Shown: piece after piece, positions 1,587 to 38,514 of the stretch
Layout: each line of letters starts with the position of its first letter
Numbering within the stretch: the stretch's first letter is position 1
Source: a virus
DNA length: 42,087 bases
IMG/VR virus record: IMGVR_UViG_3300023184_000242
Location: 1 to 42,087 of that record
Strand: one strand, 5' to 3'
The notes under the pieces: generated by a model
Database searches by the model: none
What the model saw: the letters and a program-made list of their open reading frames with translations, nothing else
Told to the model about the DNA's origin: nothing
Made by a program: the position numbers and the translations under genes

Positions 1587-1958
1587 ATGAAAAAATCACA
1601 ACTACGTCAAATTATCAGAGAAGAAATTTCTAAAGCTATCAATGAAAATCCCTTAAATATTGATGAAGGAGCTCCAAATTTACTAAGAATGGCTGGAGAA
1701 TTTTTTAGCATTCCTGGTGTTTACAGCGATAAAACTAAAATGAATTTAAAAGATTTAGAAGCTAAAATGGAAGAAATGGGATTTGCAAGAGGTGGTGCAA
1801 TATGGAATGCTATTTTAGATAAAGCAGTAGAATATGGTTTTAAAGGAGAAGTTGGAATGACTGGCAAAATGGCAACATTCACAGGAGAAAAAAGTGCAGC
1901 GCAAAAAATTGGCGCAACAGCAGCGGGTGTCACTAGTACACGTAGAAAAGCTGAGTAA
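1587..1958 (+). CDS. Putative packaged protein with capsid-targeting-like leader
   Basis: The 123-aa product starts MKKSQLRQIIREEI and continues SKAINE (residues 15-20), an amphipathic helix ending Ile-Asn-Glu with Asn next. The leader is the same type as at 12043 and at residue 145 of the protein at 32160, and the similarity extends to the DNA (TACGTCAAATTAT then AGAGAAGAAAT). By analogy with T4 internal proteins, cleavage after Glu20 would leave a 103-aa mature protein. The body contains a helical segment around 51-85 and ends in a Gly/Ala/Thr-rich, basic tail (STRRKAE). I do not recognise a fold. It stands alone behind a TATTTATAA motif, so it is probably late. Confidence 0.75.
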   Translation: MKKSQLRQIIREEISKAINENPLNIDEGAPNLLRMAGEFFSIPGVYSDKTKMNLKDLEAKMEEMGFARGGAIWNAILDKAVEYGFKGEVGMTGKMATFTGEKSAAQKIGATAAGVTSTRRKAE

Positions 1959-12042: not shown

Positions 12043-12234
12043 ATGAATAAATCAGAATTACGTCAAATTATTAAAGAAGAAATAAATAAAGCTATTAAAG
12101 AAAGATTCCAATATAATTTATCTGAATCTCAAAAGTTAAATACTCAACAAGAAATGAAAAACTTAATGAATGATATACTTGAATCAAATAAAAAAGTAAA
12201 ACAATTGATGAAACAAAAAGGATATGAAATTTAA
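12043..12234 (+). CDS. Short capsid-targeting-like leader protein
   Basis: The 63-aa product is little more than the leader: MNKSELRQIIKEEI then NKAIKE (15-20), giving Ile-Lys-Glu followed by Arg, and a second Leu-Ser-Glu|Ser at residues 26-29. A charged helix follows (36-60). The DNA of the leader is closely related to that at 1587 and 32592. The gene overlaps the next gene by 11 nt. Its insertion between gp6 and the following virion gene is odd, and suggests a recently inserted cassette. Confidence 0.7.
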   Translation: MNKSELRQIIKEEINKAIKERFQYNLSESQKLNTQQEMKNLMNDILESNKKVKQLMKQKGYEI

Positions 12235-22702: not shown

Positions 22703-23140
22703 ATGTGGTTACATAAAAATAAAGTTATAAATAAAATAGAAGATTTCCCTGAAAATATATTTGGATTTATTTACAAAATTACCAACAATGAAACTGGAAA
22801 GTTTTACATTGGTAAAAAACAGTTAATGTCTAAAACCAATGTTAAATTAGGTAAAAAGGAAAAAGCAGCACTACCAACACAGCGTGGTAGAACTCCATCT
22901 AAAAAATTAGTAGTTAAAGAAGCTGACTGGCAAAACTATTGGGGCAGCAACAAACCACTACTTGAAGAGTTAAAATTAGGTAAAGATAAATTTACAAGAG
23001 AAATATTAATGGTATGTTCAAGTAAAAAAATGTTAACATATTGGGAGGCAGCATATCAAATAAAATTAGATGTACTGCTAATAGACAGCTACAATGAAAC
23101 AATTTTAGGACACTACTATAAAAAAGACTTTTTAAGTTAG
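22703..23140 (+). CDS. GIY-YIG endonuclease
   Basis: A 145-aa protein with the GIY-YIG core at residues 20-38: FGFIYKITNNETGKFYIGKK ('IYKI' and 'YIG' strands, with Gly-Lys-Lys). The middle carries the ...DWQNYWGSNKPLLEELKLGK stretch (72-92) followed by FTREILMVCSSKKMLTYWEA, where the Glu of 'YWEA' (residue about 114) is the probable metal ligand. This is the compact phage form, with no DNA-binding extension, so it could be a homing nuclease or a repair or restriction nuclease. It starts 3 nt after the last virion gene. Confidence 0.8.
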   Translation: MWLHKNKVINKIEDFPENIFGFIYKITNNETGKFYIGKKQLMSKTNVKLGKKEKAALPTQRGRTPSKKLVVKEADWQNYWGSNKPLLEELKLGKDKFTREILMVCSSKKMLTYWEAAYQIKLDVLLIDSYNETILGHYYKKDFLS

Positions 23141-24920: not shown

Positions 24921-25886
24921 ATGATTTCACTAGTACAACTTTTACAGGAAATATGTATCTTTGAAGGAGGAAATGTTTTTGGTACTACATCATCTATTAA
25001 AAAAGAAAACATACAACCAACCTTAAAAAAATTTATAATAGAATTAAAACAAATTTACCCAAAAGTAGATTTTAAATTTAACACATTAGGTTCTGTTGGT
25101 AAAAAAGATGAATCTGGAGATATTGACTTAGGTATGAGTGTTGACCAATTTATAACTAAAGATGGTACACCACTACTAGATAATTGGAACATTGATAAAG
25201 CAGAATTTGACGCTTTATATGAAAAAATAAGAAAACGTACAAGATCAGCTACTGAAACTCAAAGTAAATTAAGAGCTATGTTAGAATTAGCAGCTATAGA
25301 TATTGAAAAAAATTCACAGTTTATAAACACTGACATTAAAGCAGCAGGTGGTGGTTCAATATTTTGTATGTTTCCTCAATTTGATAAAGAGAATAAAGAA
25401 CTACCTGAAAAATCAGTACAAATAGATATTAATGTAGGCAACTTAGATTGGTTAACTTTCAGTTACTATTCAAATACATATAAAGATAATGTTAAAGGTT
25501 TACATAGAACACAGTTAATGTTAGCTATGTTTCAAGCCTTAAATATGATGTTTAAACATAGTACTGGTGTTACTTCAAAAACGACAGGAGAAACTTTAGC
25601 AACAAATTCTCAAGAAGCAATAAATGTATTAAATAAAGGCTTCAATCTTAGTTTATCTCAAGATATATTAAATGACTATTTTGAATTAATGAATGCTTTA
25701 AAGAAAAATTTACCTAAAGAAAAGTTAAATCAAATACTAGATATATATTTAAAAATATTAGATTCAACAAGAGCAGATATCCCATTTGATATACAAGACT
25801 ATTGGATTGCAAATCAAGAACGTTTAGGATTAAAAGGTAAATTTTTACCAGACAATTCTAACTTAACTAAATATAAAAAAGTATAA
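24921..25886 (+). CDS. Putative packaged nucleotidyltransferase
   Basis: This 321-aa protein begins MISLVQLLQEICIFEGG, a leader of the MIKLL type ending Ile-Phe-Glu|Gly at residues 13-16. The enzyme part carries LGSVGKKDESGDIDLGMS (56-73): the Gly-Ser helix start and the Asp67-x-Asp69 pair of the polymerase-beta-type nucleotidyltransferase fold. A third acidic position is likely in QIDINVG (about residues 173-179). Substrates of this superfamily range from tRNA to proteins and antibiotics, so none can be named. It overlaps the polyprotein gene, which starts with a second nucleotidyltransferase domain, by TAATG. The pair may act together. Confidence 0.75.
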   Translation: MISLVQLLQEICIFEGGNVFGTTSSIKKENIQPTLKKFIIELKQIYPKVDFKFNTLGSVGKKDESGDIDLGMSVDQFITKDGTPLLDNWNIDKAEFDALYEKIRKRTRSATETQSKLRAMLELAAIDIEKNSQFINTDIKAAGGGSIFCMFPQFDKENKELPEKSVQIDINVGNLDWLTFSYYSNTYKDNVKGLHRTQLMLAMFQALNMMFKHSTGVTSKTTGETLATNSQEAINVLNKGFNLSLSQDILNDYFELMNALKKNLPKEKLNQILDIYLKILDSTRADIPFDIQDYWIANQERLGLKGKFLPDNSNLTKYKKV

Positions 25887-28800
25887 TGTCAGGATCAATA
25901 GGAGCAAATAGAATTCCAAGAGCTGCAGTTGAAACTACTCTTAAAGCATACATTGATAAAGTGCTGAAAAAATTCCCTGGATTTAAATCAGCTAAAATAT
26001 CAGGTTCATATAACACTACAGTAAAACCAGATCATGGTGACATTGATTTAGTTATTAATATTGAAGGAGACGAACAAGATAGAAAAAAACTTAAACAAAA
26101 TTTTGCAGCATATATATCATCATTGCCAGATGATATAACTATTCCTTTTACATCTGGTCGACATGTTGGCAAAAAAGCAGCCGGTACAGGAGACATAGTA
26201 ATAGTACAATTTGCTATTGAAGGTTATCCTGACTTAACAGTTCAAATAGACAACATGATTGTTGCTTCTGAACAGGAAAGTGAATATAGAAAAAGTTTTT
26301 TAGATTTACCTGCTGAAAAACAAGGTTTGTTGGTTGGTTTAGCTAAAGCTCAATTGTTAGAAGAAGATCCAATAGAAATATTTAAACGTTTAGGAATTAC
26401 TAACATTCCTAAATTAGACAAAAATCAAGAACTTGAATTCAATTTATCAAATAAAGGCTTAACATTACGTTTAGTTACATTAGGAGATAATTTTAAAGAA
26501 TTAGGACGAAACGAAATATGGACTTCATTTAATTGGAGTGATGTAGAAAAATTATTTAAAGATTATAAACTAGATGGAACCTGGGAAGAATTATTAGAAT
26601 CTATTAATTCTAAATTAAAAAATTCCCGTTCACGAAATCGTGTAAAAGGAATATTTAACTCATTAGTAGTAATAAATGCTGGTGAAGCAGGAACTGATAA
26701 AGGTAATAACAAATTAAAAGCAAAAAAGACAGTTGATAATCTCTTAGAAAATATGTTGTTTAAAGGTTTAGTTAAAGAACTAATTATGCCACTATTAGAA
26801 GATGAATTTCAAGAAACAATAGCTATATATCCAGGTAAGTTTAAACCTCCACATAAAGGACATTTTGAAGTAGCTAAACAATTAATTGGTAAAGTAGATA
26901 AAATAATTATAGCAATATCTGCTAAAGAACATGATGGCATAACTGCTCAACAAAGTGAAGCAGTATGGAAATTGTACAATACACTATTAGATGGAAAACT
27001 TGACATAGAAATAATTAAAGGTGCTCCTGTAGGATATGTACTTGATACTATTAAAGAAAATCCAAATAATCACTATGTAGCAGTATATGGTAAAGGAGAG
27101 GAAGGTAGATATAAAGCTATAGGTAAAGATCCTCGCTATATGAACGCTGAAATATTTGATGGAGGAACAGCAGAAGATGAAGAAGGTAAAATAGATGCTT
27201 CAAATTTAAGAATAGCATTAAATAAAAATAAAAATATATCTAAATTTTTACCTAAAGGTATTACTCCTGAAGAATACAAACAAGCATTAGGACTTTCATT
27301 AAATGAATTAGAAGATTATGAAATTAAATATTGGGCTTTACACGCTGATCTTTACAAAGCTTTAAAAGATAATCCAGATAAAGAATATGAAATTTTAAAA
27401 AATGAATTAAAAGGAGAGAGACTTAAAGCCTTAAATTATTTTTATTATAGTTATCTTGCTAAAGATGCACCTAAGAAGATTAATGAAGATAAAGAACAAA
27501 AACTTCGAATATTTGACTTTGACGATACATTAGCTCATGTTAATGCTACAATATATATAACTCATAAAGATGGAACAGAGGAAGAACTTACACCAGCAGA
27601 ATATGCTGTATATGAACCACAACCTGGTGACACATCAAACTTTAGAGAATTTAATGCTGTTATTAAAAATGCATCACCTATAGAAAAAAACATAAATTTA
27701 CTCAAACAAGCTGCTTCTGATTCAAACACTAGAGTTACAATATTAACAGCTCGTGGATTAGGCTATCCAGTTAGCAAATATTTAAAAGATAAATTTAATT
27801 TAGACATTTATGTAGTAGCATTAGGCAGTAGTGATCCACAAAAGAAAGCAGAATACATAGAAGATCAAATTGAAAAAGGATATTCAGACATTGAATTTAT
27901 TGATGACTCAACAAAAAATGTAAATGCTGTCAATCAATTAAAATTAAAATATCCAGACATAAGATTAAACGCAGAAATAGCTGAAAATATACTCCTTGAA
28001 AATACATCATTTCAACTACCTGATTTCAAAACACATTTAACATCTTTAACTAAATATATGGTTGATCAAGGTATGAACATTAAACCATATCCTACGTTAA
28101 AAATCATAAATAACGATTTTAAAAACGCTGAAAACATGTTAGGTAAAACAGCATATTATGATCCAACTAATTGTTCAATCACTTTATACACATTAAATAG
28201 ACATCCAAAAGACATATTGCGTTCATATGCTCATGAAATGATTCACCGCATGCAAGATAATGAAGGTAGATTGAAAAATATTACTACTACTAACACCAAT
28301 GAAGATGGAGATTTAGAAGAATTAGAAAAAGAAGCATATTTAAAAGGTAACATGTGTTTTAGAAATTGGGAAGACACTATCAAAACTCCATTAAATGAAT
28401 GGGTTGCAAATATTTTAAAATATAATTACACTCCAAAGCTTTCAAATAAAATTTTTTCTCAACTTCATGAATTAAAAGTAAATGAAATAGCTCTTAATTC
28501 AAACAATGCTGTTGAAATATATGGAAATTTAACCAATGGAGATTTTACTGTAGGAGAACATGATTATAATTACAGAATAATAAAATTAGATAAAAATCCA
28601 TACAACAGTAACTTATTTTACAACATTGATTTTCATGAAATAGGAAATAAAAATCCTAATCCTTCTTCACCAACAGGAAATGCTAAGGAAAACTACATAA
28701 AAATACTATCAACTATGTATAAAATTATATTAGATTTTACTAAAGAAGAAAAACCAGAATATATAGGAATATCAAGTTTAGACGAAAGTGGATATGGAAA

Positions 28801-28927
28801 TATTTACAATAACTTAACTAAAACAAATAAAATTCCAGACTACTCCAGAAAAGATGCAGGTTTACAATTTAAAGATAAAGATGGAAAAACTGGAAAGTTT
28901 ATAATATTAAAAAGAAATAAAATATAA
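25886..28927 (+). CDS. Multidomain packaged polyprotein: nucleotidyltransferase, NMN/cytidylyltransferase-like, HAD, HExxH peptidase
   Basis: The 1013-aa protein has domains in this order. (1) About 15-135: nucleotidyltransferase, SGSYNTTVKPDHGDIDLVIN, with Asp52/Asp54. (2) About 312-455: nucleotidylyl transferase with YPGKFKPPHKGH (315-326, the HxGH site). (3) About 538-690: HAD hydrolase with DFDDT (544-548), TILTARG (618-624) and FIDDS (671-675). (4) About 710-850: HEMIH (783-787), a zinc peptidase HExxH motif. (5) About 865-1013: unassigned, GNAT-like at best. Between (1) and (2) lies ENMLFKGLVKELIMPLLEDE (288-307), a leader-like helix ending Leu-Leu-Glu|Asp. Before (3) comes Ile-Asn-Glu|Asp (532-535), and before (4) AEIAENILLENTSF (696-709, Leu-Leu-Glu|Asn). 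The linkers look like prohead protease sites, so it may be cut into separate enzymes. No leader is seen at its own N-terminus. Confidence 0.75.
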   Translation: MSGSIGANRIPRAAVETTLKAYIDKVLKKFPGFKSAKISGSYNTTVKPDHGDIDLVINIEGDEQDRKKLKQNFAAYISSLPDDITIPFTSGRHVGKKAAGTGDIVIVQFAIEGYPDLTVQIDNMIVASEQESEYRKSFLDLPAEKQGLLVGLAKAQLLEEDPIEIFKRLGITNIPKLDKNQELEFNLSNKGLTLRLVTLGDNFKELGRNEIWTSFNWSDVEKLFKDYKLDGTWEELLESINSKLKNSRSRNRVKGIFNSLVVINAGEAGTDKGNNKLKAKKTVDNLLENMLFKGLVKELIMPLLEDEFQETIAIYPGKFKPPHKGHFEVAKQLIGKVDKIIIAISAKEHDGITAQQSEAVWKLYNTLLDGKLDIEIIKGAPVGYVLDTIKENPNNHYVAVYGKGEEGRYKAIGKDPRYMNAEIFDGGTAEDEEGKIDASNLRIALNKNKNISKFLPKGITPEEYKQALGLSLNELEDYEIKYWALHADLYKALKDNPDKEYEILKNELKGERLKALNYFYYSYLAKDAPKKINEDKEQKLRIFDFDDTLAHVNATIYITHKDGTEEELTPAEYAVYEPQPGDTSNFREFNAVIKNASPIEKNINLLKQAASDSNTRVTILTARGLGYPVSKYLKDKFNLDIYVVALGSSDPQKKAEYIEDQIEKGYSDIEFIDDSTKNVNAVNQLKLKYPDIRLNAEIAENILLENTSFQLPDFKTHLTSLTKYMVDQGMNIKPYPTLKIINNDFKNAENMLGKTAYYDPTNCSITLYTLNRHPKDILRSYAHEMIHRMQDNEGRLKNITTTNTNEDGDLEELEKEAYLKGNMCFRNWEDTIKTPLNEWVANILKYNYTPKLSNKIFSQLHELKVNEIALNSNNAVEIYGNLTNGDFTVGEHDYNYRIIKLDKNPYNSNLFYNIDFHEIGNKNPNPSSPTGNAKENYIKILSTMYKIILDFTKEEKPEYIGISSLDESGYGNIYNNLTKTNKIPDYSRKDAGLQFKDKDGKTGKFIILKRNKI

Positions 28928-32159: not shown

Positions 32160-32912
32160 ATGGCAAACGAACTAAAAACATATGGTGATTTAAAAAAATT
32201 AATACAAGGTATTAGTAGACAACAAAAAGGTGAAAAAATCCTATCTAAAGGAAAAGAAGTTGCTTTAGATACTCTTTTAGGCTTCATTCCATTTGCATCA
32301 GCAGCAAAAACCACATTTGATTTTATGCGTGCTGCTATATCTAAACCAGATGGTAAAAAAACAGATACATGGTTAGATAAATTAGACATTGATGATGATA
32401 TGTCTAAAATAGTTGATGACACTGTAGAAAATGGATTTATGCAAATGATGGCTAAAACTATAGAAGGAGAATCTGATACTAAACCTTTAGAACAAGATTT
32501 TAACATGAATGCTAAAATGGTGGACTATTTAAAAACACATTATGGTGGCAGAACAGTAGCAGGAATAAAAGAAAATAAAATAAAAAATAAAATGAAAGAA
32601 TCACAATTACGCCAAATCATTAAAGAAGAAATTTCTAAAATAATAGAAGCAGAAGTAGCTCCTGCAGCCCCAGCTATAACTACAGCAAAACCAGCAGTAA
32701 AACAAACAGCCGCTTCAACTGCATATCAAAAAACAGCACAAAAAGCAACAACTGTAACTTCAAAAGCTGCTCAAATTAAAAGTATAAATGATTTACCAGG
32801 TGTATTTGAAGTTTGGTTTAGTTCATTAGGACTTAAAGGACAAGCAGGTGTTAGTCAAACAGCTATTTTATCTAAAATAAGAGATACCCTAACAAAAATG
32901 GAAATAAAATAA
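32160..32912 (+). CDS. Fusion protein with an internal capsid-targeting-like leader
   Basis: The 250-aa protein has two parts. Residues 1-139 are a conserved helical phage domain (LDTLLGFIPFASAAKTTFDF, TDTWLDKLDIDDDMSKIVDD). At Met145 a complete second leader begins: MKESQLRQIIKEEISKIIE|A (Ile-Ile-Glu-Ala, 161-164), followed by an Ala/Pro/Lys-rich linker and a small C-terminal domain (about 210-250). The junction codons GAA AAT AAA ATA AAA AAT AAA ATG read like an A-rich intergenic leader that lost its stop codon. Either two genes fused or translation also starts at 32592, giving a separate 106-aa packaged protein. Confidence 0.7.
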   Translation: MANELKTYGDLKKLIQGISRQQKGEKILSKGKEVALDTLLGFIPFASAAKTTFDFMRAAISKPDGKKTDTWLDKLDIDDDMSKIVDDTVENGFMQMMAKTIEGESDTKPLEQDFNMNAKMVDYLKTHYGGRTVAGIKENKIKNKMKESQLRQIIKEEISKIIEAEVAPAAPAITTAKPAVKQTAASTAYQKTAQKATTVTSKAAQIKSINDLPGVFEVWFSSLGLKGQAGVSQTAILSKIRDTLTKMEIK

Positions 32913-35988: not shown

Positions 35989-38514
35989 ATGATAATAGAA
36001 AAAAACATACATAAATTTATAACACACATTGTAAACAATTTGTTTCCTCTTAACGAATATCAAGAGGGAGAAATAAAACTTTTAATAAATAAATTTAAGC
36101 AAGAAGCTGAAGATTTAAACATTGACATTAATGACACTCAACTTAGAAAATACATTGAACGTTTTGACCAATTAAAAGATTCTTCTAAAATAGAAGATAA
36201 AAACTTACGCAACTATCCTTTAAGTAAACTAATAAAATTAGTTACATCATCAAAAGGTGCAGATGTTGAAGATGAAGAAACAGGTCCAGATGTAGTATAC
36301 AGTGAAAATGGCATTACAGTTTACAGTGGAGCAAATGAAGAATTATGTCAAAGACATAGATCTGAGGTTCCATGGTGTATTACTAAAAGTGCTTTTGGAA
36401 ATTACAGATACAGTAAAGACAGAGGATTTCCATCATTTTACCTAATAAAAAATGACACAGATGAATATAGGGATAATGAAAAATTAAGTTTTGTAGCAAT
36501 TCAAGTTAGAGATGGTTCATTTCCAACAAATAAAAAATACATTTGGACTCCTAAAGATAATCGACCAAATGAATCTGAACCAATGGGTTGGAGTAAATTA
36601 ACATCAGATATTCCATGGTTAACTCAAATTCCAAACATTGAAAATATACTTAAATACATTCCTTTATCTTCTACTGAAAAAGCTACTCAATTATATGGTA
36701 AAGATGAAATAACAATACGTGAATGGTCTAATCTTCCTTTTGAAATAAAAAAACAATATTTAGTAATTAGAAAAGAACTTACAATACTATTTAAAGATAT
36801 TACTATAGATGAGTTTGTGTCAAAATATTTACCAAAATACCCTCAAATAGCTACATTTATAGCTACAAATGCTGGTGTAATTGCTCCTAAAATATTAGTT
36901 AAAAATTTAGATAAATTTTCCAATAATGATAGAAAATCTATTATTGAAAACTTAAGAGAATCATTTAAAACTGATGAATTAAGTAAAGATTTTCTTCCAT
37001 TTGACGTAAAATTACTATTAACAAAATTAAAAAAATGGAATCTTGGCTCAGATGAAAGAATATACATTACTAAAAATAATGAAGCTATAGTCAAACTAAG
37101 ATTTACATCAGGTGATGTTCAAATGGGAATATTTACAGCAGAAGATGAATATCCAAATGTCAAATTAAACACTCGTACCTCAAAGTACTTACTTGACTAT
37201 CCAGAAATAGATGAAATTCCATTCAATACTCTTATTAAACTAACAAATGATGAAGCAATTGATAAAAGTTTTATTGAAAAAGTAATAGTAAAAGCCGAAG
37301 AAGATCCAAACTCAGCTATAGTAATTAAAGATGTAGAAGATGGTAAAATATTATTAGATTCCAACACATTTACTTCTTATAAGATTAAAGATGGTAAAAT
37401 AAGTTCTATACCATTCAACGATGAAGAAGTACAAAACGTATTAAGTACAGAAACTAACAATACTGGTTTTCAAGAATCAGCTGTTAATTTAGTATTTCAA
37501 CAAAAAGATCTTTCACCTTCAATAGATAAAAATGCTTTTCTTAACATATTAAAAAATACTCCATACGATAAAAGAACAAAAGATGGTTCAGTAATATTAA
37601 TTGATGATAATCCAGAATCTACTAATCCAATATTTGCTATGCCAACTGAAATTCCATTTCGTATTAAAACTGGTTTTAGTTATGGAAGGGGGGATACTTG
37701 GAACCAATATTTTTCTAGAAACCAAGATTTAGATACGGACACAATTAAACCATATTTTAATTATTTAAGAAGTAAAAATGTAGGATTTAATGATGAAACA
37801 TTAATAAGATGGTTAGACAGCAGTTACACTGGTCTTTCTAAAAAAATAATATCATTAAATCCCCCTATGGAACCAAATAGTATATACTATCCAGCAGTAA
37901 TTGGAGATAAATATGTACTTATCAACAAAAGCAATCCAGCAGCAAGTAAAGCAATAGGTAAAAATAATACATTTGTTAGAGCAAATATACCTCTAAGTGT
38001 AGCAAGAGAAATAACAGGTGTAGGAGCAGAACAAACTCCTAGAGCGCCTAGAACACCAAGACCTACAACTCCTCAAGCAGCAGTGGCGCCTAATACTACA
38101 GTAAACAATGTACTTGATTTTAATGGATTAACAGCAGGATTTAATAGTTTACCAACAAGTATAAAATCTAGAATAGGAGGAGGAGACATTGTTCCTTACA
38201 ATAGACGTAATGCATCAGTAGACGCAATAGGTAGAGTTCGAACATTTATACAAAATGGACAAAGCAAATTTTACATAATCAGACTTAATAGTGGAACAAT
38301 GATTGGTTTTGCCACCATGCAACCTGACGCTAGACATTATATAGTAACTGCTACTACTTCCTATCAAGTGCCAAGAGTAGGCCAACTAGCATCAGTGTTA
38401 CAACAGCGAAATATATCTGAAGGAACAAAAACAGCATTAAAAATGCACGCTGCTGCTTATCCTGAAGAAGCAAATGAAATAAAGAAAATTTTACAAAAAT
38501 TAAAAATAAAATGA
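35989..38514 (+). CDS. Large conserved phage protein with WCI-type domain
   Basis: An 841-aa protein. The start MIIEKNIHKFITHIVNNLFP, then LNE|Y, is compatible with the leader pattern. Residues about 95-190 hold the block VVYSENGITVYSGANEELCQ, then EVPWCITKSAFGNYRYSK and SFYLIKND. This 'y.e.g..vy...n.......g....WCI......y..y......fyli.d' signature occurs in many large phage proteins and has no known activity. The rest is a long alpha/beta series, a Pro/Arg/Ala-rich linker (TPRAPRTPRPTTPQAAVAPN, about 683-702) and a C-terminal domain (705-841). The linker suggests two separable parts. Probably packaged cargo or a large virion protein. Confidence 0.6.
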   Translation: MIIEKNIHKFITHIVNNLFPLNEYQEGEIKLLINKFKQEAEDLNIDINDTQLRKYIERFDQLKDSSKIEDKNLRNYPLSKLIKLVTSSKGADVEDEETGPDVVYSENGITVYSGANEELCQRHRSEVPWCITKSAFGNYRYSKDRGFPSFYLIKNDTDEYRDNEKLSFVAIQVRDGSFPTNKKYIWTPKDNRPNESEPMGWSKLTSDIPWLTQIPNIENILKYIPLSSTEKATQLYGKDEITIREWSNLPFEIKKQYLVIRKELTILFKDITIDEFVSKYLPKYPQIATFIATNAGVIAPKILVKNLDKFSNNDRKSIIENLRESFKTDELSKDFLPFDVKLLLTKLKKWNLGSDERIYITKNNEAIVKLRFTSGDVQMGIFTAEDEYPNVKLNTRTSKYLLDYPEIDEIPFNTLIKLTNDEAIDKSFIEKVIVKAEEDPNSAIVIKDVEDGKILLDSNTFTSYKIKDGKISSIPFNDEEVQNVLSTETNNTGFQESAVNLVFQQKDLSPSIDKNAFLNILKNTPYDKRTKDGSVILIDDNPESTNPIFAMPTEIPFRIKTGFSYGRGDTWNQYFSRNQDLDTDTIKPYFNYLRSKNVGFNDETLIRWLDSSYTGLSKKIISLNPPMEPNSIYYPAVIGDKYVLINKSNPAASKAIGKNNTFVRANIPLSVAREITGVGAEQTPRAPRTPRPTTPQAAVAPNTTVNNVLDFNGLTAGFNSLPTSIKSRIGGGDIVPYNRRNASVDAIGRVRTFIQNGQSKFYIIRLNSGTMIGFATMQPDARHYIVTATTSYQVPRVGQLASVLQQRNISEGTKTALKMHAAAYPEEANEIKKILQKLKIK

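What the first reader, a model, noticed from the sequence alone, without database searches (positions are those of the whole stretch)
25886..28927. 1013-aa polyprotein: four enzyme-like domains joined by leader-like cleavage linkers
A nucleotidyltransferase (D52xD54), an HxGH nucleotidylyl transferase (315-326), a HAD phosphatase (544-675) and an HExxH peptidase (783-787) sit in one frame. The linkers carry leader-like helices ending LLE|D (303-306), INE|D (532-535) and LLE|N (703-706), placed at domain borders. This looks like a virion-packaged polyprotein processed by the prohead protease, a use of the T4-type protease that I do not know as described for such enzymes. The combination of nucleotide chemistry (possibly NAD or tRNA related) and a peptidase suggests takeover functions active right after injection.
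Basis: partly seen in the sequence, partly recalled or inferred. Interest (0 to 1): 0.9.

Follow-up and report, generated by a model that had tools for sequence, protein, structure and literature searches.

The report
Phage enzyme polyprotein with cleavage leaders
A T4-type phage, probably infecting Flavobacterium-like bacteria, encodes a chain of enzymes joined by short leader-like cutting signals; comparison with hundreds of relatives suggests the capsid-maturation protease releases them as separate cargo, a virus-style polyprotein that I could not find described for tailed phages.

Summary
The ORF (25886-28927, 1013 aa) and all reported motifs and sites are real. The site motif alone (hydrophobic-x-Glu) is near chance: it occurs 22 times in this protein. 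Comparison is what carries the claim. In relatives, each tested enzyme unit also occurs as a separate gene. Its N-terminal leader ends hydrophobic-x-Glu at the same border, and the linkers inside polyproteins are Met-less copies of those leaders. Leaderless relatives start right after the Glu. When two genes fuse, L-[T/N]-E appears at the join (4 of 4). A near-identical relative lacks exactly the phosphatase cassette, and its homology stops at the last base of the E534 codon. AlphaFold places all five candidate sites (305, 474, 534, 705, 838) in its lowest-confidence linkers. Related long genomes carry the S77 (gp21-type) prohead protease and gp23 capsid proteins with LLE/LVTE leaders; leaders concentrate in the head/cargo region. 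Best explanation: a head-cargo polyprotein cut by the prohead protease into about six parts. Packaging and cutting are inferred, not observed; enzyme substrates are unknown. The parts (capsid-targeting leaders, gp21, polyvalent proteins) are known; their combination into a combinatorial cargo polyprotein appears new.

The parts
24921..25886 (+). Upstream gene: second nucleotidyltransferase-like protein (321 aa) with N-terminal leader MISLVQLLQEICIFE|GGNVF; leader codons 24921-24965
   Evidence: Relatives: 80 leadered ORFs (54 unique leaders), residue before GGN[VI]F is E in 54/54; 8 leaderless relatives start M|GGNVF. Fused to the polyprotein in L005, L187, L196, L227
25886..26749 (+). Unit 1 (aa 1-288): Pol-beta-type nucleotidyltransferase, D52/D54
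   Evidence: Pfam DNA_pol_B_palm weak; Foldseek to DNA polymerase lambda/beta; invariant D52, D54; 78 relatives start M|SG.., 4 fused ones have L-[TN]-E|SG
26750..26803 (+). Internal leader NMLFKGLVKELIMPLLE and candidate cut E305|D306
   Evidence: Met-less copy of leaders such as MNSLVKELIQPLLE of stand-alone genes; pLDDT <50 at 289-308
26801..27307 (+). Unit 2 (aa 306-474): HxGH nucleotidylyltransferase of the PPAT/NMNAT superfamily
   Evidence: Pfam CTP_transf_like; PDB profile and fold matches to phosphopantetheine adenylyltransferase, TM 0.72 on target length
27305..27310 (+). Candidate cut SLNE474|L475
   Evidence: LNE at the start of the same mini-module in L012 behind an unrelated domain; pLDDT <50 at 473-479
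27308..27487 (+). Unit 3 (aa 475-534): 60-aa helical mini-module
   Evidence: Shared with L004, L012, L027, L030 only
27485..27490 (+). Candidate cut INE534|D535
   Evidence: Stand-alone phosphatases begin MILLRDLLNE|DKKLRIFDFDDT or MPLARTLFTE|DKKLRIFDFDDT; nucleotide homology to L004 ends at the last base of codon 534; pLDDT <50 at 526-554
27488..28000 (+). Unit 4 (aa 535-705): HAD phosphatase, D544/D546, D673/D674
   Evidence: PHROG 415 E=7e-11; separate AlphaFold model pLDDT 86, ordered about 539-698; HAD fold matches MDP-1 and others
27998..28003 (+). Candidate cut LLE705|N706
   Evidence: Stand-alone peptidases begin MNHLVKELIQPLLNE|IETPQP.., MLSLVKELIQPLLQE|GCGC.., MIKLSSLLSE|IYAEP..; pLDDT <50 at 685-712
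28001..28399 (+). Unit 5 (aa 706-838): minimal HExxH metallopeptidase (783-787)
   Evidence: 13-member alignment with invariant H783, E784, H787; only weak Pfam zincin matches
28397..28402 (+). Candidate cut PLNE838|W839
   Evidence: Relatives SPINE|W, NNINE|W, DTITE|W, NPINE|H; pLDDT <50 at 834-880
28400..28927 (+). Unit 6 (aa 839-1013 plus stop): C-terminal domain of unknown function
   Evidence: Occurs elsewhere in the chain in L007 and as a 178-aa free gene in L080
39795..42085 (+). Further unrelated genes with the same kind of leader: MIKLLNILKETLLE|S, MIKLLQLLTE|A, MIKLINILSE|A, MIKLVEILQDILAE|K
   Evidence: strict leader in 8 of 23 ORFs of 22.7-42 kb against 3 of 26 of the tail region and 4% of control segments

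Best explanation
The gene encodes a head-cargo polyprotein of a T4-type myovirus. Short amphipathic leaders ending hydrophobic-x-Glu, the same kind that sits at the N-terminus of many separately encoded cargo proteins of these phages, sit between the enzyme units. Inferred mechanism: the leaders bring the chain into the prohead core, the phage's S77 (gp21-type) prohead protease cuts after each Glu during head maturation (about 305, 474, 534, 705, 838), and the freed units (a Pol-beta-type nucleotidyltransferase, a PPAT/NMNAT-type nucleotidylyltransferase, a helical mini-module, a HAD phosphatase, an HExxH peptidase and a C-terminal domain) stay in the head and enter the host with the DNA. The leader plus unit behaves as an exchangeable cassette. 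Shown here: cassette structure, border-exact placement of the sites, linker position, protease and matching capsid leaders in relatives. Inferred: packaging, cutting and early action in the host.
For: Leaders before the HxGH domain: hydrophobic-x-E within 18 aa in 67/67 leadered stand-alone genes and 55/56 internal linkers, against 26% of random windows of the same proteins and shuffled means of 39.0 and 35.7; the linkers are Met-less copies of the leaders. Upstream gene: E before GGN[VI]F in 54/54 unique leaders, leaderless relatives start M|GGNVF. Fusions: L-[TN]-E|SG in 4/4 where free genes start M|SG (78 ORFs). Phosphatase and peptidase as single genes with leaders. Cassette absence in L004 with homology ending at the last base of codon 534. 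Five sites in pLDDT<50 linkers. S77 protease (Pfam E=9e-35) and gp23 with LLE/L-V-[TVAM]-E leaders in relatives, gene order portal-protease-scaffold-capsid as in T4. Leaders enriched in the head/cargo region: 38% against 4-13% elsewhere in phage immuto. T4 gp21 cuts after L/I-X-E, and 10-19-residue leaders target internal proteins into the head (PMC9026906).
Against: No proteomic or biochemical data. Unit 1 has no N-terminal leader in most relatives, and capsid targeting by an internal leader is not established in T4. The motif is common by chance (22 copies; unspecific matrix). The window fragment itself does not contain the protease or capsid gene.
Confidence: 0.7

Rival explanations
1. A polyvalent protein that is packaged and injected as one intact chain; the leader-like stretches only target it to the head or serve as flexible linkers.
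For: Phage N4 virion RNA polymerase and plasmid ArdC/TraC1 are transferred uncut although they hold metallopeptidase domains (PMC5512222). No cleavage data exist for this family.
Against: The Glu is the conserved residue exactly at each border (54/54 in the upstream gene), and gene fusion creates L-[TN]-E at the join, which targeting or flexibility would not require.
Confidence: 0.12
2. The chain cuts itself with its own HExxH metallopeptidase unit, before or after packaging.
For: Self-processing by zincin-like domains is the proposal made for polyvalent proteins such as P1 DdrB (PMC5512222).
Against: The same borders occur in chains and single genes without that unit (L187, L196 and L231; upstream gene), and the same L-x-E pattern is in the gp23 capsid leaders. 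Hydrophobic-x-E fits the gp21 rule.
Confidence: 0.06
3. A cytoplasmic multi-enzyme of nucleotide or cofactor metabolism that is never packaged; the helices are docking or oligomerisation elements.
For: Enzyme folds are nucleotide-related; the gene lies next to primase and exonuclease genes.
Against: It sits in a cluster dense in leadered genes leading into the head module, and the order and choice of units vary freely between relatives, unlike a fixed pathway enzyme.
Confidence: 0.1

Closest known systems
T4 internal proteins IPI-IPIII and Alt with capsid targeting sequences, cut by gp21 prohead protease
   Same: Short N-terminal amphipathic leader, cut after hydrophobic-x-Glu, cargo inside the head injected into the host (PMC9026906, PMC9958956); related genomes here carry an S77 protease in the T4 gene order
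   Different: In T4 each protein has a terminal leader; here leaders lie inside one chain between several enzyme units
Polyvalent proteins of phages and conjugative elements (Iyer et al. 2017)
   Same: Multi-domain, shuffled chains with Pol-beta nucleotidyltransferase and zincin-like domains, proposed to be delivered with DNA (PMC5512222)
   Different: That work proposes self-processing by metallopeptidase domains and holds no mention of capsid targeting; no gp21-type inter-domain leaders are described in the passages read
Prohead-protease processing in giant phages (SPN3US gp245, phiKZ gp175)
   Same: Many head-cargo proteins cut after a short motif ending in Glu
   Different: In SPN3US all mapped cuts release N-terminal propeptides except one C-terminal self-cut (PMC10052503)
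Flavobacterium phage vB_FspM_immuto gene 182 (QQO92100.1, annotated NadR)
   Same: Orthologous 907-aa polyprotein, about 40% identical over the shared part, same gene neighbourhood
   Different: Lacks the HAD cassette and the matching C-terminal domain, has another C-terminal HExxH-containing domain

Membership tests
Head-targeted internal proteins cut by a gp21/S77 prohead protease | The phage encodes a Peptidase_S77 prohead protease | tested here: inconclusive
   Not in the 42-kb window fragment; present in phage immuto (Pfam PF03420 E=9e-35) and in 12 of 15 long related records, the other three being fragments
Head-targeted internal proteins cut by a gp21/S77 prohead protease | Short leader ending hydrophobic-x-Glu immediately before the mature protein | tested here: met
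   Upstream gene 54/54 with E, 51/54 with I/L/V at P3; HxGH unit 67/67 and 55/56
Head-targeted internal proteins cut by a gp21/S77 prohead protease | Capsid protein of the same phages has the same kind of cut site | tested here: met
   gp23 relatives have leaders with LLE repeats and L-V-[TVAM]-E|[ASG] before the mature part; exact cut not mapped
Head-targeted internal proteins cut by a gp21/S77 prohead protease | Protein found inside mature heads in cut form | not testable with these tools
   No virion proteomics in the library searched
Polyvalent proteins | Several unrelated catalytic domains in one chain with shuffled architecture in mobile elements | tested here: met
   Six units here; domain order and inserts vary among 50 polyprotein relatives of 428-1535 aa
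Polyvalent proteins | Delivered into the host with the DNA | not testable with these tools
   Inferred only from leaders and gene position
NMN adenylyltransferase / NadR (annotation of the immuto homolog) | NadR/NMNAT substrate-specific relationship | tested here: inconclusive
   Best PDB profile hit is an archaeal NMNAT-type protein MJ0541, most others PPAT; best folds PPAT

The most novel reading that the evidence does not exclude
Tailed phages of this group run a combinatorial cargo-polyprotein system: leader-plus-enzyme cassettes are strung together, imported into the prohead by internal leaders, and freed by the capsid-maturation protease, a phage counterpart of Gag-Pol-type processing coupled to assembly.
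Probability: 0.6. Interest if true: 0.87.

Novelty: new variant of a known kind. Interest (0 to 1): 0.78.

Why it matters
If true, phage head maturation doubles as an enzyme-release step. Head cargo can then be predicted genome-wide from the leaders, and many 'hypothetical' late genes of aquatic T4-type phages become testable candidates for proteins injected at infection. It also explains why unrelated enzymes are fused in changing orders, and gives a natural design of a leader cassette for packaging and releasing several proteins in one head. A cultured relative (phage immuto on Flavobacterium sp. LMO8) makes it directly testable by virion proteomics.

Tried and rejected
Motif counting alone was rejected as evidence: 22 hydrophobic-x-E sites in the chain. 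A gapless 10-residue matrix trained on upstream-gene leaders was not specific: in 46 of 54 polyproteins its top hit lies inside unit 1, usually at a folded helix (GLAKxILLE). A mixed alignment of all domain fragments misaligned and was dropped for one of whole chains. The HAD unit alone finds nothing in annotated phages, but viral contigs gave 80 loci. A scan of bacterial and archaeal genomes with unit 1 found no relative, so no host or provirus link. PDB sequence profiles found no relative of the peptidase or HAD units and only insignificant ones for unit 1. Literature searches for this kind of phage polyprotein found no match, but the library lacks most subscription journals. NadR as substrate assignment was not accepted.

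Full report
The observation. ORF 25886-28927 on the + strand encodes 1013 aa. The window is a 42,087-base virus record. Its closest annotated relative is the Flavobacterium myovirus vB_FspM_immuto, whose gene 182 (907 aa, annotated NadR) is about 40% identical over the shared parts and lies in the same gene neighbourhood.

What chance gives. The pattern hydrophobic-x-Glu occurs 22 times in the chain, and a matrix built from real leaders of the upstream gene also scores a helix inside the first domain near the top. The motif therefore proves nothing alone. The question is whether it sits at borders and behaves as a border in relatives.

Relatives: single genes with leaders. Scans of viral contigs gave several hundred relatives. 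After removing near-duplicates, the HxGH unit occurs N-terminally in 79 genes and internally in 56 chains. Stand-alone genes begin with leaders such as MNSLVKELIQPLLE|ATTQTVALYPGKFKP or MNLGQYIAQQLLE|ADKQTIAIFPGAFKP; some are leaderless (MIALYPGAFKP). Internal linkers are the same leaders without Met, e.g. NLGRYLVSLLLE|QDQPTIALFPGKFKP and, in the window, FKGLVKELIMPLLE|DEFQETIAIYPGKFKP. Hydrophobic-x-E lies within 18 aa of the domain in 67/67 leadered genes and 55/56 internal linkers, against 26% of random windows of the same proteins; composition-preserving shuffles give 39.0 (SD 3.8) and 35.7 (SD 3.5). These counts are not independent by descent.

The HAD phosphatase occurs alone as MILLRDLLNE|DKKLRIFDFDDT and MPLARTLFTE|DKKLRIFDFDDT (window PKKINE|DKEQKLRIFDFDDT). 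The peptidase occurs alone as MNHLVKELIQPLLNE|IETPQP, MLSLVKELIQPLLQE|GCGC and MIKLSSLLSE|IYAEP. The upstream nucleotidyltransferase gene (window 24921) shows the border most sharply: in 54 unique leaders the residue before GGN[VI]F is always Glu, with I, L or V two residues earlier in 51, while leaderless relatives start M|GGNVF.

Fusions and cassettes. In 78 ORFs unit 1 starts M|SG; in the four chains where it is fused to the upstream gene the join reads TLTE|SG, KLNE|SG, RLTE|SG or TLNE|SG, so a cut there would give the N-terminus that the free protein has after Met removal. Locus L004, 96% identical in DNA over the last 905 bases, lacks the phosphatase: its upstream homology to the window ends at nucleotide 1602 of the gene, the last base of codon E534.

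Structure. AlphaFold on the whole chain gives folded units separated by segments under pLDDT 50 at 289-308, 473-479, 526-554, 685-712 and 834-880, which hold the five candidate sites 305, 474, 534, 705 and 838; other low segments lie inside the poorly modelled HAD and C-terminal units. The in-domain LLE at 159 is in a helix with pLDDT about 93. A separate model of the HAD unit is ordered from about 539 to 698. Unit 1 resembles polymerase lambda/beta and unit 2 phosphopantetheine adenylyltransferase; the HAD unit resembles several HAD phosphatases. Substrates remain unknown.

Protease and head. Phage immuto has a Peptidase_S77 gene and a gp23 capsid gene in the T4 order of portal, protease, scaffold, capsid. 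Both are found in 12 of 15 long related records; the other three are fragments. The gp23 leaders carry LLE repeats and end L-V-[TVAM]-E|[ASG]. T4 gp21 cuts after L/I-X-E, and 10-19-residue leaders bring internal proteins into the head (PMC9026906). Strict leaders occur in 38% of immuto ORFs at 100-131 kb (cargo and head) against 9%, 13% and 4% elsewhere, and in 35% of window ORFs at 22.7-42 kb against 12% before; control segments give about 4%.

Explanation and rivals. The best account is a head-cargo polyprotein cut by the prohead protease. Self-processing by the HExxH unit is disfavoured because the same borders exist in chains and genes without it. An intact injected chain does not explain why Glu is kept at the border and appears at gene joins. 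A cytoplasmic multi-enzyme does not explain the leaders or the changing unit order. Unexplained: how a chain whose first unit has no N-terminal leader is brought into the head, since internal targeting is not established.

Novelty. Capsid-targeting leaders, gp21-type cutting and polyvalent proteins are known (PMC9026906, PMC9958956, PMC10052503, PMC5512222). In SPN3US all mapped prohead cuts release terminal propeptides. Searches for a phage enzyme polyprotein cut by the prohead protease found none in the library held, which lacks most subscription journals. I rate it a new variant of a known kind.

Noticed in passing
window 1587-1958, 12043-12234, 32160-32912; L001 genes 176 and 190: A second leader type, MKKSQLRQIIKEE.., recurs on unrelated proteins, once in the interior of the ORF 32160-32912; immuto genes 178, 193 and 194 share a third type (FDLKKFLVENKLT.NS).
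   Followed up: partly
L003 record (G001) 97902-101301 and L117 record (G011) 60985-64430: Two tandem gp23-type major capsid genes lie side by side in two related genomes.
   Followed up: no
window 22703-23140; immuto35A_170: Annotated 'NAD synthetase' (PHROG 447 too), but it also matches several homing endonuclease families, so the public label is probably wrong.
   Followed up: no
L018:13583-14824 (immuto35A_203): Annotated 'DNA polymerase phi-like protein', but it is acidic and lies between the prohead protease and the major capsid gene, where T4 has scaffold gp22; likely a mislabelled scaffold.
   Followed up: no
window 35989-38514 and L003:8001-11450: By eye, the 841-aa ORF and an insert in the L003 polyprotein share a domain with a Cys-rich WCIT / FCISA motif; function unknown.
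   Followed up: no
L001 16001-18724 (aa about 720-907), also L005, L008, L013: Relatives carry a different C-terminal unit starting LxE|GRYD with a second HE.EH motif, apparently another metallopeptidase-like cassette.
   Followed up: partly
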